The notes beneath the pieces are model-generated. The model worked only from the letters and a program-made list of their open reading frames with translations, searched no databases and was not told where the DNA came from. Below, piece by piece: positions 1 to 41,713 of a DNA stretch of 64,000 nt (positions within the stretch are counted from its first letter, which is position 1; every line of letters begins with the position of its first letter). The stretch comes from Lusitaniella coriacea LEGE 07157. Lineage in GTDB: Bacteria > Cyanobacteriota > Cyanobacteriia > Cyanobacteriales > Spirulinaceae. The translations under genes and the position numbers were made by a program. Where the stretch lies: the NCBI RefSeq assembly GCF_015207425.1, contig NZ_JADEWZ010000020.1, positions 1 to 64,000 of the forward strand, in the 5' to 3' direction.

Positions 1-698
1 GAGACAGGGGAGAGAGGGAGACGGGGAGATATTCTTCATCCTGAACTCTGAATTCGGAATTCGGAATTCGGAACTCTGAAGGGTTGGAGGTGCTTTGAGC
101 CACAGTCGCCGAACACCAACTTAAATAAAACACGCTGGTATGAATTGCTATTCGCGCGATCGTTGGCTGACTAGACATAAATTTGACTGCATTCCTGACG
201 CTCCCCTGGATTGAGCTGCCTAATTCGCTACGTCATGAGTTTCCCCGACGCAATAGAATTCAACATCGCCTAAAAGGTTGATTCCGCAATATTGTCCGAA
301 GGATTCAGAGTAAGGGTGAATTGATTTTTCATTCCAAAAGTAGGGCGTATCTCCTTGAGAGCGTGCGGGTAAGGGGAAAATATGGAGTAAAAATTTTTTC
401 ATTTAAAAATATAGATATCACTGAATATTCGATCGCTAAATGAGGTTGGATATCAGTAATTCCTCACAAATATTACATTGTTTTTCCTGAAAACTTAACA
501 AATCTAAATGTTTTCCGAACTGAAAGAACGGAAATGAAAGGTCAAAAGTATAGGATAGCGGCTGTTAGGAAAAATGGTGTAGTTAATTACTTAGCGTTCA
601 GCCATTCCAATATGGCTATAGCTACAGCAGCTTAGTTGGGCGACTCTTAGTGAGTGCGAATACAATGGGGGAAGATTCCAAAACGGGAGTTGAGGTTA
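1..698. other. Left-edge intergenic region
   Basis: This stretch holds no confident gene. Bases 1-90 are low-complexity purine-rich sequence followed by three overlapping copies of a gaattcgg-type unit, a common sort of intergenic filler in cyanobacteria. A 60-codon minus-strand reading frame lies at 220-402 and is listed separately with low confidence. The rest, 403-698, is AT-rich and presumably carries the promoter of the CHAT gene that follows. I see no tRNA or clear terminator here. Confidence 0.5.
220..402 (-). CDS. Small hypothetical protein, doubtful
   Basis: This is a 60-residue reading frame starting with ATG and ending with TAG. The start MKKFLLHIFPLP is basic then hydrophobic, but the rest is polar with two cysteines and no family I recognise. 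No strong Shine-Dalgarno sequence precedes it. It lies in a gene-free edge region, so it may be the remnant of a longer gene or a chance frame. I give it only because nothing else explains this segment. Confidence 0.2.
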   Translation of the reverse strand: MKKFLLHIFPLPARSQGDTPYFWNEKSIHPYSESFGQYCGINLLGDVEFYCVGETHDVAN

Positions 699-3302
699 AT
701 GTTGAAGCCTGTACGTCGTTGGTTCAAGTGGTTGGGGCTATTACTCCTTAGCGCGTTGTGTTGCTGGGTATTTCACTGGGGGGCGATCGCATCAGAGATG
801 CGGCTCTACGAGATCGCGCAAACACCCCCCACCCAACTCTCCACCGCAGCAACGGTAGAACAGGGTATTTCTGCTTATCAAGGGGGGGACTTTACCGGCG
901 CGATCGCGATTTGGCAGCAAGTACTTTCCCGCATTAACTCCGATGAAGATCGTGCGGTGGTTTACGCCAATCTCGCTTTAGCCTATCGGCAAACCGGTCA
1001 ACTCTCGGAAGCGATTCAAACCTGGGAAGAGGCGATCGCGCTCTACCGCGATCGCGACGAGGAAGATTTAGAGATTGCCAAACTCTTAGCGGAACAGGCT
1101 CAAGCCTACAGCGATTTGGGGCAGCACAAGCGAAGCATTATCCTGTTGGAATCTGCCTTAGACATCCTCGAAGAGCAACCCGATCCCCTTACCGAAGCCG
1201 CAATTCACGGCATTTTTGGCAATGCTTACATGGCGTTGGGCAATTATGACACCGCGATCGCGTCCCACGAAAAAAGCCTCGCGATCGCCCGCAGCAGTAA
1301 CAGCACTCGCCACATTGCAACCGCTCTCAATAACCTGGGAACGGCTCACCTGAAGCAAGCCGAACGCTTGTATTATCAAGCAGAAGTTGCCGATGCCGAG
1401 GGCGATCCTCAAGCGAAACAGCTAAAGCAAGAGGAACAAGAAAATGTCGCGCGATCGCGCAGTCTCTTTGAGGAAAGTATTACTGTCGCCCAACAAGGCA
1501 AAAAATTAGAGGAAATTCGGGCATTACTCAATCTCAATCGCCTGCTCGAAAAAAGTTTTCACCAAGGTTTATCCGAGAACAATGGTGGAGAAATTACCAG
1601 CAATCAGCAGCGAATTGAAGAATTACTCCCCTTGATACCTGATTCTCGCCAAAAAGCCTATGCAACAATTAATTTAGCTGAAAGCATCCTCGATCGCGCC
1701 GACGAAAAAATGTTAGATCGGGTCGTACCGCTCCTAGAACAAGCCTTAACCATCGCACAACGCATTGGGGATACCAAAGCCCAATCCTTTGCCCTGGGAA
1801 GCTTGGGGAAAGTCTACGAAAACAATCTCAAGGACTTTGGGCGAGCGATGGAGTACACCCAAAATGCCCTCTTTGTCTCCCAACAAGTGAATGCTGCCGA
1901 TAGTTTGTATCTGTGGCAATGGCAGTCTGGGCGCATCCTCAAAGCCCTCAATCGTCCCGCCGCCGCAATCTCGGCGTACAAACACGCGATCGCGACGCTG
2001 CAAAGCATTCGCGGCGATATCATCTCCGCTAACAAAGAACTACAGCTCGATTTCCGGGAAGATGTCGAACCCGTTTATCGCCAACTCATCGAGCTACTGC
2101 TGACGACTCCCGACACCGAAGCAATAACATCTCAAGGGAAAGCAGAAAGGACAAAATCCACCCTCCTCGCTCAAAACACATCCTCTTCTCGCCTCCAAGA
2201 AGTTGTCAATACCCTAGAAAGTCTCAAACTCGCTGAAGTTCAGAACTTTTTCGGCGACGATTGCGTGCAATTAGCACTCTCTAGAGGCAACGGTACCCAG
2301 GAAAGTTTGGCATCGAGCAATACGGCGGTGATTTACTCCATCGTCCTGGGCAATCAAACAACGCTCGTTCTCCAAGCTCCCGACGGAACGCAAAAAAAAT
2401 ATACTAAGACCATCGATAAAGACAGCATTGAAGAAGAAATTACCCAACTGCGGTTTTATCTCGAAGAGCGACCTGCCGCCCGCTATTTACCCTACGCTCA
2501 AGCGGTTTATGACTGGTTCATTCGACCGATGGAAGCAGACTTAGCGGCGATGAAACCCAACACCCTGTTGTTTATTAATGACGGAGTATTGCGGAAAATT
2601 CCAATGGCGGCACTCCACGATGGGGAACAGTTTTTGATTGAGAAATATCCCATCGCCATCACGCCGAGCATTAACCTAACCATTACCAGACCCTTAAGCC
2701 GCGAGAATCTCGAAGCTTTGAGTTTGGGCTTAACCGTTGCAAAACCGCCCTTTGCTCCGCTGTTTAACGTTAAAGCTGAGATTAATGCCGTTCAAGAGAT
2801 TTTGGGAGGGGTGAAATTAATCGATGAGGACTTTACTCAAGAAAATCTCCAAACTCAATTACGCGCAAAATCTTTCCCCGTCGTTCACCTGGCAACTCAC
2901 GGAAAATTTGGGGTTGATGCTCAAGATACCTTTTTGTTGGGATACGACAAACCCCTGACCATTGAAGACATTGACAATCTTTTAAGGACGCGGCGCGATC
3001 GCGAACCCGTGGGACTCTTGACCATGAGCGCCTGCCAAACTGCCGCCGGAGATAATCGTTCTGCCCTCGGTATGGCTGGCGTTGCGGTGCGTGCGGGGGT
3101 CGAAAGCGCTCTTGCAACTCTGTGGTTTATCAATGATGAAGCAACGGTTCCCTTTATCAAAGAATTTTACCGACAACTGCTCGATCCCAAACTTACCAAA
3201 GCCGAAGCGCTCAGAAATGCACAATTAACGATGATTGCCGATCGAAATTACTCGCACCCTGCAATTTGGTCGCCGTTTGTTTTGATTGGAAATTGGCTGT
3301 AG
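699..3302 (+). CDS. TPR-CHAT domain protein, exported
   Basis: The protein is about 867 residues. An N-terminal hydrophobic segment (residues 8-25, WLGLLLLSALCCWVF) looks like a signal peptide or anchor, so it probably acts in the periplasm or at the membrane. Residues about 40-420 are tetratricopeptide repeats (motifs such as AIxxWEEAIALY and ALNNLGTAHL). The C-terminal third is a CHAT domain, a caspase/separase-like peptidase fold. The catalytic pair is visible: His in ATHGKFG (about residue 734) and Cys in MSACQTAAGD (about 779). TPRs usually bind partner proteins, and substrates are unknown for this family. I chose ATG 699, preceded by GGAGTTGAGG, over a GTG at 654, because it places the signal segment at the very N-terminus. 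Two other CHAT genes lie in the window. Confidence 0.88.
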   Translation: MLKPVRRWFKWLGLLLLSALCCWVFHWGAIASEMRLYEIAQTPPTQLSTAATVEQGISAYQGGDFTGAIAIWQQVLSRINSDEDRAVVYANLALAYRQTGQLSEAIQTWEEAIALYRDRDEEDLEIAKLLAEQAQAYSDLGQHKRSIILLESALDILEEQPDPLTEAAIHGIFGNAYMALGNYDTAIASHEKSLAIARSSNSTRHIATALNNLGTAHLKQAERLYYQAEVADAEGDPQAKQLKQEEQENVARSRSLFEESITVAQQGKKLEEIRALLNLNRLLEKSFHQGLSENNGGEITSNQQRIEELLPLIPDSRQKAYATINLAESILDRADEKMLDRVVPLLEQALTIAQRIGDTKAQSFALGSLGKVYENNLKDFGRAMEYTQNALFVSQQVNAADSLYLWQWQSGRILKALNRPAAAISAYKHAIATLQSIRGDIISANKELQLDFREDVEPVYRQLIELLLTTPDTEAITSQGKAERTKSTLLAQNTSSSRLQEVVNTLESLKLAEVQNFFGDDCVQLALSRGNGTQESLASSNTAVIYSIVLGNQTTLVLQAPDGTQKKYTKTIDKDSIEEEITQLRFYLEERPAARYLPYAQAVYDWFIRPMEADLAAMKPNTLLFINDGVLRKIPMAALHDGEQFLIEKYPIAITPSINLTITRPLSRENLEALSLGLTVAKPPFAPLFNVKAEINAVQEILGGVKLIDEDFTQENLQTQLRAKSFPVVHLATHGKFGVDAQDTFLLGYDKPLTIEDIDNLLRTRRDREPVGLLTMSACQTAAGDNRSALGMAGVAVRAGVESALATLWFINDEATVPFIKEFYRQLLDPKLTKAEALRNAQLTMIADRNYSHPAIWSPFVLIGNWL

Positions 3303-9180: not shown

Positions 9181-9585
9181 CTCTTTGAGTTATAGCAGTC
9201 GCTAAAACAGTTAGGACAACAGCCAAAGCACTAAACCTTGGCGGGTCAAGGTTTTCCCTTCTGCCCTCTACCTCCTGCCTTTGGCGATAGAGGCTGTTTG
9301 CGATAGGAATTCCTTAGCGATCGCGTCTGAGAGCCACAACCCACTTCGTCATTGAGTAACATTCGACCCAATTTGTACTAGCGTATACAAATATTAGACT
9401 AAATTTCTGAACCTGATGATAACTTAAGCGCGTCCCCTCTCGCTACACCGAATAGAGTACAGCGCTTTATGGAAAATCCCTTAAGATCCCCAACGCGATC
9501 GCGAAATACTAGCAATCCGCCCGGTGAGAATGCGAAAATAACAAGATTAAGGCAATGGAGATCCCCAAAAAGGAGAAAATCAATC
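9181..9585. other. Intergenic region upstream of ndhM, with hairpin
   Basis: About 400 bases separate two divergent genes. A perfect 8-base stem (AAACCTTG 9233-9240, CAAGGTTT 9247-9254) with loop gcgggt precedes two further T residues. No gene is seen. The reading frame of ndhM stays open upstream to 9469, but that portion has no similarity to NdhM. Confidence 0.4.
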
Positions 9586-9945
9586 GTGTTATTGAAATCT
9601 ACAACTCGTCACATTCGCCTCTACGCAGCAGAAGTCCAAGATAACGAGCTGATTGAGAGCAACAATGTTTTGACCTTAGATGTCGATCCCGATAACGAAT
9701 TTAATTGGAGTGAAGATGCCCTACAACGGGTTTACCATCAATTTGACGAGCTAGTGGAATCTTACAGCAACCAAGATTTGACGGAATACAATCTCCGTCG
9801 CATTGGTTCTGATTTGGAACACTTGATTCGCGATCTCTTGCAACAAGGTCAAATTAGTTACAATCTTCAGGGGCGCGTTCTCAACTACAGTATGGGATTG
9901 CCTCGCATGGAAAGCCCAGAATCCGAAGGAAAGTACGCCAGTTAA
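9586..9945 (+). CDS. ndhM: NAD(P)H-quinone oxidoreductase subunit M
   Basis: NdhM is a small stromal-side subunit of the cyanobacterial and chloroplast NDH-1 complex, which carries out cyclic electron flow and respiration at the thylakoid membrane. The 119-residue protein starts [17 protein letters not shown] and has the family signatures [32 protein letters not shown] and [10 protein letters not shown]. The start is GTG 9586, preceded by AAGGAGA at correct spacing; an in-frame ATG at 9469 would add 39 unrelated residues and is rejected. The length matches the family. It is followed 28 bases later by a small membrane protein gene, probably in the same transcript. Confidence 0.95.
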
Positions 9946-9973
9946 ATCCTAAATCCCTTACCCTATTGCAACT

Positions 9974-10216
9974 TTGTCCTCTGATAAATCTCTAAATCCC
10001 TGGCATTACAAACCCTGGTGGTGTCAACCTTGGTCGATCGTGCTAACCGGAATTCTCCTGGTGGTGGGAAGCGGTTTTCTCAGCAATCGCCTGTGGGTTG
10101 CCGCGATCGTTGCCTTGCCCATTTTAATGTGGTGGGGCTATTTTCTAATTCTCTGGCCGAGACTGATGCAAAGTAGTGGAATTTTGTCCGAATACCATCG
10201 AGAATTGCGAGATTAA
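9974..10216 (+). CDS. Small two-helix membrane protein, conserved in cyanobacteria (DUF6737-like)
   Basis: This is an 80-residue protein. A tryptophan-rich start (NPWHYKPWWCQPWSI) leads into two hydrophobic helices (about 21-38 and 41-62) and a short polar tail. The start codon appears to be TTG at 9974; there is no ATG at a suitable place and no strong ribosome site. I believe it belongs to a small uncharacterised family of cyanobacterial membrane proteins (DUF6737), but that name is from memory. It follows ndhM closely, which suggests cotranscription. Role unknown. Confidence 0.72.
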   Translation: MSSDKSLNPWHYKPWWCQPWSIVLTGILLVVGSGFLSNRLWVAAIVALPILMWWGYFLILWPRLMQSSGILSEYHRELRD

Positions 10217-10253: not shown

Positions 10254-10432
10254 TAAGCTAAAACACATTCAAATTGGGTATCGAGCGCTCTGTCTCAAAG
10301 CCGTCAATCTCTCACCGTGTCACCGCGTCCCCCATTCCCCGTGTCAGCCCTAACTAAGGCGATTCAAACGGATTTTATATCACCCCATCCCCGTGTCAGT
10401 CTCATTCACAATTTTAAATGCATAGCAGCTTA
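10254..10432 (+). repeat. Family A element, copy A1
   Basis: This 179-base element has ends TAAGCT and AGCTTA as inverted repeats. It begins aaacacattcaaattggg and ends aaatgcatagcagctta. The inside has runs of accgtgtc and cccattcccc. Other full copies are at 41912-42045 (minus) and 53547-53750, with partial ones at 18842, 38843, 36708 and 58021. Its last base is the first base of the PP2C start codon, so the element forms the whole leader of that gene. Confidence 0.75.
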
Positions 10433-12636
10433 TGCTCCACTGCTCCAATTCCAACTGCCAAGTAGCTAATTCCCCGGACGATCGATTTTGTCTCAGGTGC
10501 AAAACGCCGCTAATCCATCGCTATTTATGGGCAGTGGGAACGGAAATGCTTGCGAATTCCCCCGGTCAAATCCTCGATGAGCGCTATCTCATCATCCAAC
10601 CGCAAATTGTTCTCGATACAAAACCCGCTCAACCACTAGCCCTCTCCTCAGACGTTCCCAATTGGATTGCGCCCTATCTCAAACTGTTTGCCTATCGCTT
10701 GCACGTACCGCAAGTGTATGGACAAGTCGCCCCAAGCGGTGCAGCAGGATCGATCTGGTTGTTGGAGTATGGCAGTTTTCCCAGCAGCGTCACCGAGCAG
10801 TTCGCGCGGGGTCGATTTTTTTCAACCTTGAACGAGGCGTGGGTTCATGGGAATTCCCTGCGCCAGCTCAATTGGTTGGGGCAAATTGCTCGCTTGTGGG
10901 ATCCGCTTCAAGACCAGGGAGTGGCTTCGAGTTTGTTGAACCCTTCCTTGTTGCGGATCAATGGTTCTGTGCTGCTGCTGCGGGAGTTGCAAGGGGATGG
11001 GAACGAAGAATTGCCAACTTTGGCGCGTCTCGGTCGGTTGTGGTCGCAATGGACGCAGGATGCATCTCCCACCATTCAGCCATTTTTGAAAAATACCTGC
11101 GAACAATTGGAGTCCGGCGCGATCGCGAACGCCGAGCAATTAATCGCGGCATTAGATTTTGCCCTCGCCGAGTGCGGTAGCCGCGCAACCCGACAGTATC
11201 AAATTTATACTCGCACCGATGCAGGGCCCAGTCGCGACCACAACGAAGATGCTTGCTATCCCGCAGAAGGCAACGTGGCGCGCGTCGAACCCCAAGCCGC
11301 TCCCCTCGCGATCGTCTGCGATGGCATTGGGGGACATGATGGGGGAGAAATTGCATCCCACCTGGCAATTAATACGATTCAGGAGCAAGTTTCGCGACAG
11401 TCCTCCAGCACGAATTCCTCTAACCCTTCCCTCACGCTACAACTCCTAGAAGAAGCCGTTTGTAAAGCCAACGATCTCCTCAGCGACCGCAACGATAGCG
11501 AACAACGGCACGATCGCCAGCGCATGGGGACAACCCTGGTCATGGCGTTGGCGCGCGCTCACGAAATGTATCTCACTCATGTGGGGGATTCTCGAATTTA
11601 TTGGATCGCGCGATCGGGTTGCTATCAAGTCACCCTGGATGACGATCTCGCATCTCGCGAAGTTCGCTTGGGTTACACCCTCTATCGCCATGCCCTCAAC
11701 TATTCCAACGCAGGGGCTTTGGTTCAGGCATTAGGAATGAGCGCCTCTTCTCGCCTATACCCGACTGTCAATCGCATTACCCTCGATGAAGATGGAGTCT
11801 TTTTGCTGTGTTCTGATGGCTTAAGCGATTTCGATCGCGTGGAACAATATTGGGAGACGGAAATCTTACCGATTCTCTCAGAAGAAACCGATATCGCTCA
11901 GGCGGTGGAACGCCTCGTCCACATTGCCAATACCCAAAATGGTCACGATAATGTAACGGTTGCCCTGCTTTGGGTTCGGGTCAGCTTGCCCCAAACGCCC
12001 CAAACGCCCATTCAGGCACTCGATCGACTCCCCCGCATTGCCCAAACCGCCCGACCCGCTCCCGCATCGCCCTCCTCCCAAGGGACGCAACCTGCAATCC
12101 CCCCGGAAACCCCTCAAACATCCCCTCCCCCCTTACTAAGAGCGCTAACCCTTCTCGCCCTGCTGGGGTTGGGTTTAGGCGGACTGTCCTATGGCTTGTT
12201 TCCTGAAGTGCGATCGCGCGTCAATGCCCTAGGAACAAGGGAAAAAGACGAACCCGCACTCGCCCCAACCTCTTCCCCATTACCGGAACCGCCCCTGGAA
12301 GTGGGCAATGCCCTCAAGCTGCCAACGGAGATTACCCTATATTCCCAACCCGCCGCCGAACCGACGACCGCCGACAAAATCATCGTTCCTCCCGGAACCG
12401 TCTTGCAAGTCGTCCAAAAACAGGCAATGGAGGACAAAACCCTGTGGCTCAAGTTCAAAACTTGCGCAACTGCGCCCAGCAATCCGCCCCAATTGCAACC
12501 TCTCCCACCTCAAGAAGGGTGGATTGCCGCCGATACCCTCTCCCTACTCGCTCCCCAACCCCTAACCGCCCTTCCCCCAGGGTGTCAAACGCCAACCCCT
12601 CGCCCTAATTCTCAACCCCCAACCCCCGAACTTTAA
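10432..12636 (+). CDS. Zinc-ribbon PP2C-family protein phosphatase
   Basis: This 734-residue protein removes phosphate from Ser/Thr residues, by family. The N-terminus is a C4 zinc ribbon (Cys4, Cys9, Cys20, Cys23). Residues about 30-250 are of unknown fold. The PP2C domain spans about 255-515, with metal-binding Asp residues in DHNEDA, CDGIGGHDGG (Asp297), THVGDSR, CSDGLSDFD (Asp462) and GHDNVTV. After a Pro-rich linker comes one membrane helix (about 563-585) and an SH3-like C-terminal part (about 615-720), which probably lies outside the cytosol. The start ATG abuts a repeat element and has no ribosome site, but the zinc ribbon begins three residues later, so it cannot be far wrong. The CHAT-FHA gene follows after 80 bases. 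Confidence 0.92.
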   Translation: MLHCSNSNCQVANSPDDRFCLRCKTPLIHRYLWAVGTEMLANSPGQILDERYLIIQPQIVLDTKPAQPLALSSDVPNWIAPYLKLFAYRLHVPQVYGQVAPSGAAGSIWLLEYGSFPSSVTEQFARGRFFSTLNEAWVHGNSLRQLNWLGQIARLWDPLQDQGVASSLLNPSLLRINGSVLLLRELQGDGNEELPTLARLGRLWSQWTQDASPTIQPFLKNTCEQLESGAIANAEQLIAALDFALAECGSRATRQYQIYTRTDAGPSRDHNEDACYPAEGNVARVEPQAAPLAIVCDGIGGHDGGEIASHLAINTIQEQVSRQSSSTNSSNPSLTLQLLEEAVCKANDLLSDRNDSEQRHDRQRMGTTLVMALARAHEMYLTHVGDSRIYWIARSGCYQVTLDDDLASREVRLGYTLYRHALNYSNAGALVQALGMSASSRLYPTVNRITLDEDGVFLLCSDGLSDFDRVEQYWETEILPILSEETDIAQAVERLVHIANTQNGHDNVTVALLWVRVSLPQTPQTPIQALDRLPRIAQTARPAPASPSSQGTQPAIPPETPQTSPPPLLRALTLLALLGLGLGGLSYGLFPEVRSRVNALGTREKDEPALAPTSSPLPEPPLEVGNALKLPTEITLYSQPAAEPTTADKIIVPPGTVLQVVQKQAMEDKTLWLKFKTCATAPSNPPQLQPLPPQEGWIAADTLSLLAPQPLTALPPGCQTPTPRPNSQPPTPEL

Positions 12637-12716
12637 CTTTCCTCGCCTTTAGGCAAGGAAGAATGTCAAACTGAGTATCGTAGATCGAATTTCTGGATGC
12701 AATTGAAGGTTGCAGT

Positions 12717-14330
12717 ATGCCTGTCGGAGTAAATCCTTGTTTGAGTTTAGCGATCGCGCGCCTATCCACCGCCAGCCCAGAGCATTTTGCTATCTGGGTT
12801 CTCCAAGCCCCCCTTCCCGGAGCCTACGTCCACCACGACTGCATTTGGTTGGAGGAACTCACCCAACAATGGTTGGCATGGCAACAAATGTTTTCCGTGC
12901 AAAACCAACCCCATCTCCCCGTCGTCCACCCCCTATTGCCCACCTTTCCACCACTCAATCCGGAAACTTCAGCTAGAGGCTATAGCGGGCGATTGATGCA
13001 GGAATTTGGAATGTCCCTGTGGCAATGGCTTTTTAGCGGCTCGATTCGCAACAGCCTTGCTCAAAGTCGAGGAATGGCAATCGGACAAAGCAAACCCCTG
13101 CGCTTGCGACTCGATATTCGCGATCCCAACCTGATTCCCCTTCCCTGGGAAATCATGCAACCCGAAGCCGGAAAACAATCCATCGCTCTCAATCAACAAC
13201 TCCTCTTCAGCCGCACCACCAACGATGTCGATCCCCTCAGTTTGGTGCGCGCCCGCGAAGAGTTAAATATTCTCTTGGTCTTGGGTCAAAATTCGGAGCG
13301 CGCCAGTCAAAGCGACGATCTCCTGCAACTTCAACAAGAGGCAGATATTCTGATCCAAGCCATCAAACAGCATCCCATTCCCGGCACTCCCGTGGAGCAA
13401 TTCACCGCTCCCGTTCCCGCGCGCGTCCAACCCCTGATTCAACCGACGACTGCCGCCCTGATCGACGCTCTCGAACAAGGCAATTACAATGTCTTCTTTT
13501 ACGCGGGTCACGGCATTCCCGCCCCCGATGGTGGCTCCCTCCTTCTCTCAAGGGATGCAACGATTAATGGAACAGAACTCGCTCAGGTTCTCGCGCGAAC
13601 CAAAATTGTCCTAGCGGTGTTCAACGCCTGTTGGGGAGCGCAACCCGATCGCATCGAACAGCGCACGATTCCGCGCAGCAGTTTGGCAGAAGTTTTGATT
13701 CATCACGGCGTTCCCGCAGTCTTAGCCATGCGCGACCTGATTGCCGATCGCGAAGCGCTCAGTTTCATTGAAACCTTTACCGAAGCCCTGGCTCAACGAA
13801 TGCCTATCGATCTCGCGGTTGCGATGGCGAGACAGCAACTCCTCACTCTCTATAAATTCAATCAACCCGCTTGGACGCTACCCATTTTGTATATGCATCC
13901 GGAGTTTGAGGGGGAACTGATTCAATCCATCGATCGCGGCATTACCGAACTGCCAACCATTCTCCCCAGCCATTTTGATGCTCCCCACCCCGTCGCCTTA
14001 CTGCGGTCTTTAGAGGATGACGATCGGGTTTGGCAAATTCGCGGCGGATTGATGCGAGTGGGACGGCGACCGGAAAACGATCTCGTGATTTCAGAGCAGT
14101 GGGTCAGTCAAAAGCACGCGAAAATTTTCTGTCGCGAAACGGGAAGAGAGCCAGGGGCGAGTACTCCCAGTTATTTTCTCGAAGATGACTCCCGCTACGG
14201 CACTTTTATTTCTAGCGCCGAGGGATGGCAAAAAATTCATCACCAAGAAGTTGTTTTGCAATCGGGGGTACAGATTAAATTTGGAAGTTTGCAGGGTCAA
14301 GGACTAGAGTTCGCGATCGAAGTGGAGTAG
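12717..14330 (+). CDS. CHAT-FHA domain protein
   Basis: This 537-residue cytosolic protein joins a CHAT caspase-like peptidase to a phosphothreonine-binding FHA domain. CHAT spans about 130-400, with His265 in FYAGHGIP and Cys305 in FNACWGAQ, so the catalytic pair is intact. FHA occupies about 440-535: GLMRVGRRPENDLVI, then VSQKHAKI and DDSRYGTF give the conserved Gly-Arg, Ser-x-x-His and Asn/Gly-type positions. Residues 1-125 resemble the helical region often preceding CHAT in such proteins. A GAAGG site sits six bases before the ATG. It directly follows a PP2C phosphatase gene, so reversible threonine phosphorylation read by FHA could control the protease; this is inference. Confidence 0.9.
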   Translation: MPVGVNPCLSLAIARLSTASPEHFAIWVLQAPLPGAYVHHDCIWLEELTQQWLAWQQMFSVQNQPHLPVVHPLLPTFPPLNPETSARGYSGRLMQEFGMSLWQWLFSGSIRNSLAQSRGMAIGQSKPLRLRLDIRDPNLIPLPWEIMQPEAGKQSIALNQQLLFSRTTNDVDPLSLVRAREELNILLVLGQNSERASQSDDLLQLQQEADILIQAIKQHPIPGTPVEQFTAPVPARVQPLIQPTTAALIDALEQGNYNVFFYAGHGIPAPDGGSLLLSRDATINGTELAQVLARTKIVLAVFNACWGAQPDRIEQRTIPRSSLAEVLIHHGVPAVLAMRDLIADREALSFIETFTEALAQRMPIDLAVAMARQQLLTLYKFNQPAWTLPILYMHPEFEGELIQSIDRGITELPTILPSHFDAPHPVALLRSLEDDDRVWQIRGGLMRVGRRPENDLVISEQWVSQKHAKIFCRETGREPGASTPSYFLEDDSRYGTFISSAEGWQKIHHQEVVLQSGVQIKFGSLQGQGLEFAIEVE

Positions 14331-14456
14331 GATTCTGTATATTAATCGTGAATCAATGGAAATTTAATTTTCAAATGGTTCGGAACGCGACCCTATCGCC
14401 GTGTAGGTATTCATAGTCAGTTGGGAGTATTCGGTAGGACTAGAAGGAGAATTATT

Positions 14457-15041
14457 ATGCTCGATCGATCGATTAATTGCCAAAACGATATTACCAAGCT
14501 CAAAACCGTTCAAGCAGAGTTCCTAGAGGCGCTCTTAGAAAAGGAAGCCATTTATCCCTGGAATCCGGCAGAACCCGAAACAGAAGAATATTTAGCACAC
14601 CTCGAACAGGAATTTTCCCTGGCGGATTGGTCGGAAACTCAGGACGTTCTTCCCCGCACCGAAGGCTTATTTTCTGCTTTCGATCGATGCTGGTCTGCTT
14701 CTGGTGTTGAAGCGCTGTGCGATTCGCTATGGGAGCGTTTTGGGGAGTGCGTTCCTAGAAAATGGCTGGGCGCGATCGCGGCTCAAGCGGAAACTCTAGC
14801 TTCTCAGGAAATGCACTTGGCAGATCGCCTCGTTCAGTGCGTTCAACCCATTTTGTCTCAGTGGGGAGAAGAGGATTTGTATTTGTTTGCCCGTCCGTTT
14901 GTCTATGCAATGCGTTCTGCGGAGCAAGAGGATTGCGATCGCGTGGATTGGGACACGCTTTCCCCAATCGAACGGGCGCGCTATACCCTAAAAATTGCCC
15001 GCTATGCCGTGAAACAGTTGGAAGCAAACGATTCCGATTGA
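14457..15041 (+). CDS. Hypothetical protein, helical
   Basis: The protein has 194 residues and I do not recognise its family. It is acidic, rich in Trp, Leu and Glu, predicted mainly helical, with no signal or membrane segment and no clear catalytic motif. Four cysteines are scattered through it. ATG 14457 follows AGAAGGAG at good spacing and is preferred to ATG 14421. It lies 126 bases after the CHAT-FHA gene on the same strand and may be a third member of that transcript. A hairpin follows at 15088-15108. Confidence 0.75.
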   Translation: MLDRSINCQNDITKLKTVQAEFLEALLEKEAIYPWNPAEPETEEYLAHLEQEFSLADWSETQDVLPRTEGLFSAFDRCWSASGVEALCDSLWERFGECVPRKWLGAIAAQAETLASQEMHLADRLVQCVQPILSQWGEEDLYLFARPFVYAMRSAEQEDCDRVDWDTLSPIERARYTLKIARYAVKQLEANDSD

Positions 15042-15087
15042 GTGACCGATATTGTTTTCAATGTTGGAGTTATGAACAATAATGATG

Positions 15088-15108
15088 AGGCGGACTGCTC
15101 GTCCGCCT
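15088..15108 (+). terminator. Hairpin, terminator-like without T-run
   Basis: A perfect 8-base stem (AGGCGGAC and GTCCGCCT) surrounds loop tgctc, 46 bases past the hypothetical gene and 13 bases before the next ATG. There is no T-run, so termination is uncertain. It is one of several GC-rich intergenic hairpins in the window with similar geometry (53453, 56471, 63010). Confidence 0.45.
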
Positions 15109-15121
15109 TACTTGTTAAAGA

Positions 15122-15568
15122 ATGAAACGAGTTTTTAAATTTTTATCTTTGTCTGGGCGCGATCGCGCGCTTTTGTTGAGTGCAATGCTACTACTCGCAG
15201 CAATCCGCTTGGGACTGGTCTTTCTGCCCTTTCAAACCTTGCGTCGCCTACTGGGGAAAATAGCTCGATCCTCCCGTGTAGAATCGAGAATGGAGAGATC
15301 GCGCGATCGTATTATTTGGGCAGTTGAAACCGCCAGTCGCTACCTTCCCGGTCAAAGTCGCTGTTTGGCAAGAGCATTAACCGCTCAAGTCCTGCTCTCT
15401 CGTCAGGGCTACGAGGCTCAAATTCGCATCGGCGTGGCGAAAGATAGTAGAGGTCATCTAGAAGCTCATGCCTGGGTTGAGAGCCAAGGAAACGTCGTTC
15501 TGGGGCGTTTGAGCAACTGGGAGCGGTTTACCCCATTGCCTCATTTAGATGCGCCTCGTAGGAATTGA
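15122..15568 (+). CDS. Lasso peptide B2-type transglutaminase-like protein
   Basis: The protein has 148 residues. It has one or two hydrophobic segments (about 14-40) and then the B2/Transglut_core3 domain: SRCLARALTAQVLLSRQG carries the catalytic Cys, and GHLEAHAWVE carries the catalytic His. In lasso peptide pathways, B2 is the leader peptidase that works with a PqqD-like B1 and an asparagine-synthetase-like cyclase. None of these, nor a clear precursor peptide, is nearby, so the present role is uncertain; the gene may be an orphan acting on another peptide. It faces the sulfotransferase gene end to end, 52 bases apart, a pairing also seen in some cyanobacterial B2 clusters. Confidence 0.82.
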   Translation: MKRVFKFLSLSGRDRALLLSAMLLLAAIRLGLVFLPFQTLRRLLGKIARSSRVESRMERSRDRIIWAVETASRYLPGQSRCLARALTAQVLLSRQGYEAQIRIGVAKDSRGHLEAHAWVESQGNVVLGRLSNWERFTPLPHLDAPRRN

Positions 15569-39136: not shown

Positions 39137-41713
39137 CTAATCCGCCTCGCCAATTAACGTAAACGCCGCCCAATCGCGAGGAGCTGGGTTTTCTTCCATC
39201 ATATCCAACATCGCCTGACGCAACGCTTGCGCCTTATCCATCTTTTTCTCGTAGCGGTTCGTGTAAAACTCCGTCATCAACTCCCTCGTCTCCGTGTCGG
39301 GAACCTTCCACAGCGACACCATAATGCTGGGAACCCCTGCGGTAATCAAAGAACGAGATAAACCGATGATGCCATCTCCCGAAAGATCGCCCAAACCCGT
39401 CTCGCAGGCGCTCAAAACCACCAATTCGGCATTTAGGGGATTATTTTGAGTCATCGTTACGATCTCCCCAGAAGTCAGCAAACCATCGTTGGGATTGCCG
39501 CCGAAAATCGATTGCCCTTCCGTCCTGTTCCCAGAAGGTGCAAGGGCAATCGCGCCGGGAATCCCATAGCCAAAATCATCCAGGAGTCCGTGGGTGGCGA
39601 AATGAATCAAACGCGCGGTTTTCATGCGCTGCGCGACAGTCGTTTCTGTGGCATTTGCGCCCAAAAGTGCTTCTGTATCGAGCATTTGCGCAATTTCCGT
39701 GGCTTCGCGTTCTGCACCGGAGAGATTGGAAAGTTGGGTTGAACCGCCGTTTCCATCGGGAATCCGGGGCATAGTGGGATTTCCCACAATCAATATATCT
39801 CCCCTGCCCCCCTGCGCCCCTGCACCTCTGCTTTTATGCTTGCGAGTGAGTTGCAATACCTGAATCGAAGGCGCGGTAAGGATTGTATGCTTTTCGATCA
39901 AATAATTGAATTCTGCGTCTTGGAGTGCCGGAAAGGGAACATAGAACAGGGATTGATGGGGAATGAAAATCACCCGATCTTCGGGGTTGGTGGGAAGGAA
40001 TTCAGCGATGGGTGCAATCAGGAGTTTGTGGAGTTGTTGGAGGCGATTAGCGCGAGTGTCTTCGCTATCTCTCGCACGCACTGCAACAAGACTGCGGAGG
40101 GATTCCTGCGTACCGCGAATCAGGGATGTAAATTCGCTCCTATCTTCTTCGCCGCGTTGTCCGGCGGCTTGGAGGCGGGCGATTTCGGTGATATTGGCAA
40201 GAGAACCGTCTAGTTTTTCCAAGTCAACGGCGCGGAAGTCGATTTTTCCGGTGGGTTGGATGACCCAAATCAGAAGAGAATTAGAAAGAACGGAGTATTG
40301 AACGAGGGTGGCGTTTTGCGCTTTGGCGATTTGTTTAATTTCTTCGATGGATGGGGGATCGATTTTGGGCAGTTCCTCGGATTGAGGGTTGAGTTGTTTT
40401 GCCAGGAGTTCCACGAATGCTCTAGCACGTCCCCGTTCGGAAATTTCAAGCGCGCGATCGGTTTTGTTTTGGGCGATGAGGGTTTCTTGAAGGAGACGAT
40501 AGGTATGCGCTTGAGTTTCAAAGATAGAAATTTTATCGGCATCGGCGAGTTCAGGGGAACGTAGAGATTCCCAAACAGTAATAGCAGCGTAGAGGTTTTC
40601 TTCGGCTTCAGCGTACTGCTTTTGCTTGAAGTAAGCTCCACCCAGATTGTTGAGGGTGATTCCTTTTTTTGCGTGATTTCTTACTTCTTTCGTAATAGCT
40701 AAAGCTTGTTGATAGCATTTAATTGCTTTGGTGTACTGTCTTTGTTTTTCGTAAATCAAGCCCAGATTGTTAAGAGTTGTCCCTTCGCCAGCGCGATCGC
40801 CCACCTCTTGCGCGATAACTAGAGCTTGTTGAAGGTATTCAATCGCTTCTGAGTACTCTCCCAATGAGCCATAAATTGCACCCAGATTGTTGAGAGTTGT
40901 CCCTTCCATTAGACGATTACTCACTTCTTTGTGTATGGCTAAAGCTTGCTGGTAATATTCAATGGCTTCAGCGTACTGTCTTAGGTTGCGGTAAACATTG
41001 CCCAGATTGTTGAGAGTGGTTCCTTTCCCAGCGCGATTTCCTACTTCTTGCACGATGGCTAAGGCTTGTTGATAGTATTCAAGTGCTTTCGGATATTGCC
41101 CCAGGTTTTGGTAAACATTACCCAGATTGTTAAGGGTTGTCCCTTCTCCGACGCGATCGCCCACTTCTTGGGTGATGGTGAGGGCTTGTTGGTAGTATTC
41201 AATGGCTTTGGGGTATTGTCCCAGGTTGCGGTAAACCGCGCCCAGATTGTTAAGGGTTGTCCCTTCTCCAGCGCGATCGCCCACTTCTTGGGTGATGGTG
41301 AGGGCTTGTTGGTAGTATTCAATGGCTTTGGGGTATTGTCCCAGGTTGCGGTAAACCTCGCCCAGGTTGTTGAGCAAAGTTCCTTCACTTTTGCGCTCTG
41401 CTAGTTCTCTAAAAATAACGAGAGATTGTTGATATTTCTTCAAAGCTTCTCGAAATTGCCCTCTAGCTGCTAACTGAAGCCCTTCTCTATTCAGTCGTAA
41501 CGCCTCAGCACGTCGATCTGACGAGGTTTGTGCTTGGGTAAGTCTTTCCTGTTCTGGAATTGCGCGATCTTGCCTCAGAGTCCATTCAGCATCAACCCGA
41601 CGATTATTTTCATTCTTCGCGACAGCAGAAACGGGGAAGGAGAAAGCCGACAGCAGGAGAGCGAGGGTTAAACTCGCAGTCCATTTGGGGTTAAGAAATT
41701 GGGAAGGGAACAT
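39137..41713 (-). CDS. TPR-CHAT domain protein, exported
   Basis: This 858-residue protein begins with a signal peptide (about 11-32, LTLALLLSAFSFPVSAVA). TPR units fill about 70-400, most with the pattern TLNNLG.VY.NLGQYPKAIEYYQQAL, followed by helices and a CHAT peptidase domain (about 560-855). The catalytic pair is His708 in FATHGLLDD and Cys770 in LSACETGLGD. It is probably periplasmic. It belongs to the same family as the protein at 699, but its repeats are more uniform: two 120-base DNA units (41161 and 41281) share a 77-base identical stretch, pointing to recent unit duplication or conversion. The start lacks a ribosome site. Confidence 0.88.
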   Translation of the reverse strand: MFPSQFLNPKWTASLTLALLLSAFSFPVSAVAKNENNRRVDAEWTLRQDRAIPEQERLTQAQTSSDRRAEALRLNREGLQLAARGQFREALKKYQQSLVIFRELAERKSEGTLLNNLGEVYRNLGQYPKAIEYYQQALTITQEVGDRAGEGTTLNNLGAVYRNLGQYPKAIEYYQQALTITQEVGDRVGEGTTLNNLGNVYQNLGQYPKALEYYQQALAIVQEVGNRAGKGTTLNNLGNVYRNLRQYAEAIEYYQQALAIHKEVSNRLMEGTTLNNLGAIYGSLGEYSEAIEYLQQALVIAQEVGDRAGEGTTLNNLGLIYEKQRQYTKAIKCYQQALAITKEVRNHAKKGITLNNLGGAYFKQKQYAEAEENLYAAITVWESLRSPELADADKISIFETQAHTYRLLQETLIAQNKTDRALEISERGRARAFVELLAKQLNPQSEELPKIDPPSIEEIKQIAKAQNATLVQYSVLSNSLLIWVIQPTGKIDFRAVDLEKLDGSLANITEIARLQAAGQRGEEDRSEFTSLIRGTQESLRSLVAVRARDSEDTRANRLQQLHKLLIAPIAEFLPTNPEDRVIFIPHQSLFYVPFPALQDAEFNYLIEKHTILTAPSIQVLQLTRKHKSRGAGAQGGRGDILIVGNPTMPRIPDGNGGSTQLSNLSGAEREATEIAQMLDTEALLGANATETTVAQRMKTARLIHFATHGLLDDFGYGIPGAIALAPSGNRTEGQSIFGGNPNDGLLTSGEIVTMTQNNPLNAELVVLSACETGLGDLSGDGIIGLSRSLITAGVPSIMVSLWKVPDTETRELMTEFYTNRYEKKMDKAQALRQAMLDMMEENPAPRDWAAFTLIGEAD

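What the first reader, a model, noticed from the sequence alone, without database searches (positions are those of the whole stretch)
10432..15041. PP2C phosphatase next to a CHAT-FHA protein: a possible phospho-switched protease module
A membrane-anchored zinc-ribbon PP2C phosphatase (10432) is followed after 80 bases by a protein joining an intact CHAT peptidase (His265, Cys305) to an FHA domain (12717), and then by an unknown helical protein (14457) on the same strand. FHA reads phosphothreonine and PP2C removes it. If the three are one transcript, dephosphorylation could turn a caspase-like protease on or off. CHAT and PP2C proteins are known from bacterial conflict systems; this exact set is not one I recognise. 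No Ser/Thr kinase is in the window.
Basis: partly seen in the sequence, partly recalled or inferred. Interest (0 to 1): 0.62.

Follow-up and report, generated by a model that had tools for sequence, protein, structure and literature searches.

The report
Phosphate-reading HetF-like protease with partner
The stretch holds a widely conserved cyanobacterial gene set centred on a caspase-like protease that carries its own phospho-threonine reader and almost always occurs with one small protein of unknown kind, which suggests a new phosphorylation-controlled protein-cutting pathway.

Summary
In detail: an intact PP2C phosphatase, a CHAT-FHA protein with an intact His/Cys dyad and a new 194-aa helical family (P0003) lie in that order on one strand. 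The set is conserved, but the tight pair is CHAT-FHA plus P0003: of 290 cyanobacterial genomes 147 have both, 1 only CHAT-FHA (at a contig end), 1 only P0003. Decaying copies suggest P0003 can outlive the protease, not the reverse. PP2C lies upstream in at least 95 of 148 but is a general gene. CHAT-FHA is sister to HetF, a developmental protease reported to cut PatU3. Its linker before FHA has Thr410 in 127 of 127 proteins; in HetF-like proteins that column is Thr in 1 of 16: a candidate phospho-switch. Best reading: a housekeeping, phospho-controlled HetF-like protease acting on P0003, with PP2C a plausible, unspecific eraser. Substrate role, switch and eraser role are inferred. A defence role is unlikely. 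The open papers searched gave no description of it.

The parts
10432..12636 (+). PP2C-type Ser/Thr phosphatase (P0001, 734 aa): N-terminal 4-Cys zinc ribbon, unassigned domain about 30-250 (perhaps a degenerate kinase-like domain), PP2C 255-520, hydrophobic helix 567-589, beta-rich C-terminus about 627-711
12717..14330 (+). CHAT-FHA protein (P0002, 537 aa): CHAT peptidase (His265/Cys305) of the HetF sister clade, linker, C-terminal FHA domain
13944..13955 (+). codons 410-413 (Thr-Glu-Leu-Pro) of CHAT-FHA: linker motif T-x-x-P, Thr 127 of 127, Pro 126 of 127; candidate phospho-site for the FHA domain
14457..15041 (+). P0003 (194 aa): new all-helical family, co-retained partner of CHAT-FHA; conserved YPW motif (33-35) and R146/P147/M152/R153
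12638..12661 (+). hairpin just after the PP2C stop codon (-10.7 kcal/mol for 12632-12668, z -2.6; the wider stretch 12625-12716 folds no better than shuffles, z -0.5)
15080..15117 (+). strong hairpin after P0003 (-19.3 kcal/mol for 15078-15118, z -6.6), possible end of the unit

Best explanation
CHAT-FHA is a chromosomal, apparently vertically kept sister of the developmental protease HetF in which an FHA phospho-threonine reader stands in place of HetF's membrane/TPR part. Its dedicated partner is the protein encoded next to it (P0003), most likely its target, a protein whose activity the protease ends or releases by cutting, as HetF cuts PatU3. A Ser/Thr kinase phosphorylates Thr410 in the linker; the phospho-Thr is bound by the FHA domain of the same or a neighbouring molecule, changing the assembly and so the activity of the peptidase; the PP2C encoded upstream removes the phosphate. 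Shown: intact catalytic residues, HetF kinship, co-retention of the pair, invariance of Thr410, PP2C synteny. Inferred: that P0003 is cut, that Thr410 is phosphorylated and read by the FHA domain, and that this PP2C is the eraser.
For: HetF kinship: 18 CHAT-FHA and 16 HetF-like proteins form one clade (UFboot 98, rooted on another CHAT) apart from 20 of the 40 other CHAT hits of the same genome; NCBIfam HetF model E 1.1e-49 over residues 96-406. Peptidase: His265/Cys305 127 of 127. Partner: 147 genomes with both, 1 and 1 with one only, 141 with neither, of 290; in 29 of the 147 the two are not close neighbours, five of these on one contig at least 550 kb apart. Asymmetry among 59 near relatives: 40 both, 13 neither, P0003 alone in 4 (G008, G029, G036 intact; G035 an 80-aa relic), CHAT-FHA alone in 2 (G041, 61% complete and with an interrupted frame; G055, a copy lacking residues 300-485 with Cys305); G029 keeps a stop-ridden CHAT-FHA remnant between PP2C and P0003. 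Switch site: Thr410 127 of 127 and Pro413 126 of 127 in a linker whose other columns (402-426) are 17-80% conserved; in 16 HetF-like proteins the aligned columns hold Thr in 1 and Pro in 3; FHA core R450 113, S464 126, H467 126 of 127. Eraser: intact PP2C upstream in at least 95 of 148. HetF precedent: a review says HetF cleaves PatU3 (PMC12288457, passages).
Against: No biochemical data. 14 of 127 FHA domains lack the phosphate-binding Arg (R450 to S, M, F or C) yet keep Thr410, so Thr410 may serve something else. Thr410 lies only about 17 residues before the first conserved FHA residue (Ala427), short for binding within one molecule. Six of 16 HetF-like proteins have some T-x-x-P within 70 residues after CHAT, at scattered places, so such a motif also arises by chance. 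P0003 has no conserved Thr, so it is not an obvious FHA ligand, and no cleavage site is shown. PP2C matches all 59 near relatives, 17 of which lack CHAT-FHA, so it must have other substrates. Gaps between the genes are often above 100 bases, so an operon is not certain. Genomes are related, so 147 of 149 is not 147 independent events.
Confidence: 0.4

Rival explanations
1. P0003 is an inhibitor, chaperone or activating scaffold of the protease rather than its substrate; the true substrates lie elsewhere and are recruited by the FHA domain through their own phospho-threonines.
For: An inhibitor also fits the pattern that the protease is rarely if ever seen without P0003 while P0003 can outlive it. 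P0003 is small, helical and faster evolving than the protease (mean distance 1.16 against 0.61 in 25 loci).
Against: HetF, the sister, is reported to cut a dedicated protein (PMC12288457, passages). P0003 stays intact in three genomes without the protease (G008, G029, G036), which a mere accessory protein would not need. Not decisive.
Confidence: 0.3
2. PP2C has no special tie to CHAT-FHA: it is a general envelope phosphatase whose gene merely sits in an old conserved block (ndhM, DUF6737, PP2C, CHAT-FHA, P0003), and the real pair is CHAT-FHA/P0003.
For: PP2C relatives in 236 of 290 (paralogues possibly included) and a strong match in 59 of 59 near relatives, including those without CHAT-FHA; its best place is not next to CHAT-FHA in 31 of the 126 CHAT-FHA genomes where that place was printed, some of which may be contig breaks; ndhM is also an old neighbour (34 of 120 loci).
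Against: Upstream within 3 kb, same strand, in at least 95 of 148; an FHA reader beside a phosphatase makes functional sense; distance matrices of PP2C and CHAT-FHA correlate beyond NdhM (partial r 0.66, 25 loci), though less than CHAT-FHA with P0003 (0.76).
Confidence: 0.4
3. Thr410 and Pro413 are structural (a cap of the CHAT domain), and the FHA domain only localises the protease on other phosphorylated proteins, such as a kinase.
For: Thr410 is kept in the 14 of 127 proteins whose FHA lacks Arg450. The genome has 61 Pkinase hits that could provide ligands. One of 16 HetF-like proteins also has Thr in this column.
Against: In the other 15 HetF-like proteins the column is not Thr and the region is a variable linker; the columns on either side of the motif are variable in CHAT-FHA too.
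Confidence: 0.37
4. A phospho-regulated conflict or defence module (caspase-like effector armed by phosphorylation).
For: CHAT and PP2C proteins occur in conflict systems (recalled); PADLOC gives weak matches (PDC-M21C 0.00032 to the PP2C, caspase 0.0096 and SAVED_CHAT 0.022 to CHAT-FHA).
Against: One strong match per genome is listed, in about half of the class sample; synteny with ndhM and peptide deformylase; kinship with the developmental HetF; the 80 best of 350 loci found in a bacterial and archaeal collection all have cyanobacterial names.
Confidence: 0.04

Closest known systems
HetF (CHAT protease of heterocyst development and cell division; reported to cleave PatU3)
   Same: Closest CHAT relative found (one clade, UFboot 98); same His/Cys dyad; probably one dedicated target protein each.
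   Different: No TM or TPR part found, an FHA domain instead; far below the NCBIfam HetF cut-off (169.5 against 1200 bits); both proteins occur in one genome (G046); partner family matches no named family searched here.
TIFA (human FHA protein; Thr9 phosphorylation leads to oligomers; abstract in the listing, PMC10113258)
   Same: A key Thr close to the FHA domain (position recalled); the phospho-site controls assembly (here only proposed).
   Different: Adaptor without protease; no sequence relation claimed.
GarA/OdhI-type FHA switches of actinobacteria (recalled)
   Same: A single phospho-Thr ahead of an FHA domain read within the same molecule (proposed here).
   Different: They act on metabolic enzymes; no peptidase domain.
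PstP/Stp1 and PRK14559-type PP2C phosphatases
   Same: PP2C fold and metal residues (tPphA 2j86 Z 27.0, rmsd 3.7, 231 residues).
   Different: Below the cut-offs of NF011149 (278.5 against 374) and NF033484 (166.4 against 230); extra zinc ribbon, unknown N-terminal domain and C-terminal beta-rich part.
Kinase-kinase-phosphatase (KKP) phage-defence module (abstract start in the listing, PMC11341870)
   Same: Ser/Thr phospho-signalling genes placed together.
   Different: Prophage-borne and with kinases; here no kinase lies in the window.

Membership tests
HetF | CHAT domain in the HetF clade | tested here: met
   CHAT-FHA and HetF-like proteins form one clade, UFboot 98; but CHAT-FHA is its own sub-clade (94)
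HetF | score above the curated HetF model cut-off, full-length match | tested here: not met
   169.5 bits against 1200, only profile 72-388 of 836; of three HetF-like proteins scanned one (G046) passes with 1255.6, the others score 762.4 and 652.7
HetF | TM and TPR parts besides CHAT (as in a figure legend of PMC8406250) | tested here: not met
   FHA follows CHAT; no TPR family at E 0.1; TM absence judged by eye only
HetF | cleaves PatU3 | not testable with these tools
   needs biochemistry
CHAT peptidase (PF12770) | score above the gathering cut-off and catalytic His and Cys | tested here: met
   71.3 against 24 bits; H265 and C305 127 of 127
Phospho-Thr-binding FHA domain | Arg, Ser and His of the binding loops (roles recalled) | tested here: met
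   R450 113, S464 126, H467 126 of 127; window protein has all three; 14 of 127 relatives lack the Arg
FHA-associated phospho-switch (GarA or TIFA-like) | conserved Thr near the FHA domain | tested here: met
   T410 127 of 127; Thr in the aligned column in 1 of 16 HetF-like proteins
FHA-associated phospho-switch (GarA or TIFA-like) | the Thr is phosphorylated and bound by FHA | not testable with these tools
   needs phosphoproteomics and binding assays
PRK14559 / Stp1 PP2C equivalogs | score above curated cut-offs | tested here: not met
   278.5 against 374 and 166.4 against 230 bits; PP2C fold itself is clear
Pseudokinase fused to PP2C | kinase-like N-terminal domain | tested here: inconclusive
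   ribbon plus N-terminus against 20 own-genome kinases E 4.4e-5, but residues 28-252 alone are hardly better than shuffles (1 of 60 at least as good); no Pkinase hit at E 1 in 31 members
Anti-phage or conflict system | match to known defence models | tested here: inconclusive
   only weak matches (best PDC-M21C 0.00032 to the PP2C); context looks housekeeping
Single operon of PP2C, CHAT-FHA and P0003 | co-transcription | tested here: inconclusive
   same strand, gaps 80 and 126; hairpin after PP2C; promoter and terminator scans no better than shuffles

The most novel reading that the evidence does not exclude
A second, general cyanobacterial regulated-proteolysis pathway besides HetF/PatU3: a kinase phosphorylates Thr410 of CHAT-FHA, FHA-driven assembly switches on the caspase-like peptidase, which makes one cut in the new protein P0003 to release or remove a regulator, and the membrane PP2C with its extra C-terminal domain resets it; that is, a bacterial phospho-controlled, proximity-activated caspase-like switch present in about half of the sampled class (148 of 290 genomes).
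Probability: 0.2. Interest if true: 0.85.

Novelty: new variant of a known kind. Interest (0 to 1): 0.58.

Why it matters
HetF is one of the few bacterial CHAT proteases with a known developmental role. Here its closest relatives turn out to form a larger family with a built-in phospho-threonine reader, a near-obligate partner of unknown kind, and a conserved candidate phospho-site. If the switch works as proposed, it would join Ser/Thr kinase signalling to caspase-like proteolysis in bacteria in a way that can be tested by single point mutations (T410A, C305A) in ordinary laboratory cyanobacteria.

Tried and rejected
Defence-system reading: set aside on synteny, distribution and HetF kinship.

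PP2C as the dedicated partner: set aside, it is wider than the protease. The 236 of 290 counts relatives at E 1e-60 and may include paralogues; the best match of each of the 59 genomes (E 1.9e-199 or better) stands above the strongest second match (2.0e-192), for a few only narrowly, and five (G028, G042, G044, G051, G055) have stops inside.

Kinase-like domain in PP2C residues 30-250: the order of helices and strands in the model looks kinase-like to me, and the profile comparison is collinear with zinc-ribbon kinases, but without the ribbon it is hardly better than column shuffles, and the fold searches were filled by the PP2C domain, so that part is untested by fold.

P0003 fold: Foldseek best E 0.68, VIA best Z 5.0, no Pfam family in more than 2 of 50 members, weak PDB sequence hits only; absence of a match does not show a new fold.

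P0003 as the FHA ligand: no conserved Thr. An invariant Arg153 at the edge of a low-confidence loop could be a cut site, but this rests on conservation alone.

FHA-PrsW as a third member: its distribution is wider than the pair and it is convergent, so set aside.

Thr410 motif 'absent from HetF': my first reading by eye; a recount shows Thr in the aligned column in 1 of 16 and Pro413 in 3 of 16, and scattered T-x-x-P in 6 of 16, so I say 'not conserved in HetF' and lowered the best explanation from 0.42 to 0.40 and raised the structural rival from 0.35 to 0.37.

Promoter and terminator scans were at chance level. Papers: the listings, and passages of six papers, showed no work on a CHAT-FHA protein; no paper was read whole, and the held library is open-licence PMC only.

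Rows dropped before counts: CHAT-FHA conservation used full-length, stop-free, non-identical proteins only (98, 127). In the 290-genome count, G068 and G167 matched only at HetF-like strength (7.7e-63, 1.1e-68) and were not counted as CHAT-FHA; with them the tally is 150. The 148 include some partial genes (for example G061, G097, G261, G275, G295, G321). Second matches counted in many rows were not printed; I take them to be HetF. In 22 of 148 genomes the best PP2C place was not printed, so 95 is a lower bound. Neighbour counts depend on contig breaks, and the 120 loci include P0003-only stretches and may hold the same genome twice.
Full report
What is there. The three genes are as described: PP2C at 10432-12636, CHAT-FHA at 12717-14330, and an unknown 194-aa protein (P0003) at 14457-15041, all on the + strand with gaps of 80 and 126 bases. 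Domains were confirmed with Pfam. The unknown protein matches nothing in Pfam, NCBIfam or PADLOC at E 0.1. Upstream lie ndhM (9469) and a DUF6737 gene (9974); downstream an orphan lasso-B2/transglutaminase-like gene (15122) and a sulfotransferase gene on the other strand. The genome has 42 CHAT hits and 61 Pkinase hits; no Pkinase hit falls in the window.

How conserved. A first search of 59 relatives found CHAT-FHA proteins at 52-68% identity in 42 of them, two of these broken or interrupted, and a scan of a named collection returned the best 80 of 350 loci, all with cyanobacterial names. In 290 genomes of the class with completeness of at least 90, the CHAT-FHA profile matched 150 at E 1e-60, two of them only at HetF strength, and the P0003 profile matched 148 at E 1e-8. 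Comparing the places: 147 genomes have both, G222 has only CHAT-FHA (its downstream end lies 139 bases from a contig end), G029 only P0003, 141 neither (Fisher p 2.4e-82, not corrected for kinship). P0003 lies downstream on the same strand within 3 kb in 118 of 147. In the other 29 the two genes are not close neighbours; in five of them (G063, G198, G229, G290, G315) they lie on one contig at least 550 kb apart, in the rest on different contigs, and they are still kept together. PP2C lies upstream within 3 kb on the same strand in at least 95 of 148, but its relatives at E 1e-60 are in 236 of 290 genomes.

Loss events. Among the 59 relatives 40 have both, 13 neither, 2 only CHAT-FHA, 4 only P0003; PP2C has a strong match in all 59, five with stops inside. 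I looked at the six exceptions. G041 is 61% complete and its CHAT-FHA frame is interrupted near residue 80. G055 has a CHAT-FHA gene that lacks residues 300-485, Cys305 included, and no P0003 match. G035 has an 80-residue P0003 relic and no CHAT-FHA. G029 has PP2C, a stop-ridden remnant of the CHAT-FHA tail, then intact P0003. G036 has PP2C directly followed by P0003 (68 bases). G008 has P0003 away from PP2C and no CHAT-FHA. So CHAT-FHA without P0003 was seen only at a contig end, in an incomplete genome or as a broken gene, while P0003 can survive the protease. This fits a target or an inhibitor better than a mere helper.

What the protease is. NCBIfam matches the CHAT part to HetF at 1e-49, far below the HetF cut-off. 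A tree of 18 CHAT-FHA, 16 HetF-like and 20 other CHAT domains (20 of the 40 others) of the window's genome gives CHAT-FHA (UFboot 94) and HetF-like (99) as sisters (98), with one of the other CHAT domains as root. Of three HetF-like proteins scanned, that of G046 passes the HetF cut-off and two score lower (762.4 and 652.7 against 1200); G046 also has CHAT-FHA. HetF is described as a divisome component with CHAT, TM and TPR parts (PMC8406250, passages) and as cleaving PatU3 (PMC12288457, passages; the primary paper is not held).

The switch candidate. In 127 relatives His265 and Cys305 are invariant; FHA binding residues are R450 113, S464 126, H467 126 of 127. In the linker between CHAT and FHA, Thr410 is 127 of 127 and Pro413 126 of 127, while the other columns from 402 to 426 are 17-80% conserved. 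In 16 HetF-like proteins the aligned columns hold Thr in 1 and Pro in 3; six of the 16 have some T-x-x-P within 70 residues after CHAT but at scattered offsets, whereas in CHAT-FHA it sits 13 to 15 residues after a fixed CHAT anchor in 101 of the 103 proteins (of 127) where my pattern found it. A conserved Thr near an FHA domain is the layout of TIFA (PMC10113258, abstract) and, by recall, of GarA and OdhI. Against a pure FHA-ligand role: 14 of 127 FHA domains have lost Arg450 but keep Thr410.

The partner. P0003 homologues are 31-45% identical to it. AlphaFold2 gives an all-helical model (mean pLDDT 81.1, pTM 0.58); no convincing structural match. Invariant residues in 50 sequences include Y33, P100, L141, R146, P147, M152, R153 and S169. 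No Thr or Lys is conserved at 60% or more. Distances of CHAT-FHA and P0003 correlate at r 0.86 (0.76 after removing NdhM) in 25 loci; CHAT-FHA with PP2C 0.82 (0.66).

The phosphatase. Zinc ribbon, PP2C core close to tPphA (Z 27.0, rmsd 3.7, 231 residues), a hydrophobic helix and a beta-rich C-terminus. It does not reach the PRK14559 cut-off. A kinase-like N-terminal domain is possible but not shown.

Transcription. Hairpins follow PP2C (-10.7 kcal/mol, z -2.6; the wider stretch z -0.5) and P0003 (-19.3, z -6.6). Consensus scans for promoters and terminators were at chance level. Co-transcription is undecided.

Judgement. The literature listings and the passages seen gave no description of this protein in the open papers held.

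Noticed in passing
L033:10903-12336 and 34 of 120 loci: A second FHA-tagged protease, FHA fused to a PrsW intramembrane metalloprotease (L033), lies convergent just beyond P0003, with peptide deformylase next in 26 loci; it is wider spread than the pair (164 of 290 genomes at E 1e-40); in the window's genome the PrsW part matches on another contig (C24).
   Followed up: partly
15122-15568: Orphan lasso-peptide B2-like / Transglut_core3 protein (NF033537 3.1e-35) directly after the strong hairpin; seen in none of the 80 named loci around CHAT-FHA.
   Followed up: no
654-3302 and 39137-41713: Two further CHAT genes in the window (CHAT hits at 2490-3293 and 39146-40042); the genome has 42 CHAT hits.
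   Followed up: no
L054, L066, L075: In three Laspinema loci P0003 lies upstream of CHAT-FHA instead of downstream.
   Followed up: no
L077, L082, L084, L090: In these Microcoleus-type loci CHAT-FHA is about 75 residues longer (612 aa) and no PP2C relative lies in the 8 kb held on either side.
   Followed up: no
9469-10216: ndhM and a DUF6737 gene form an old conserved block with PP2C and CHAT-FHA (34 and 12 of 120 loci).
   Followed up: partly
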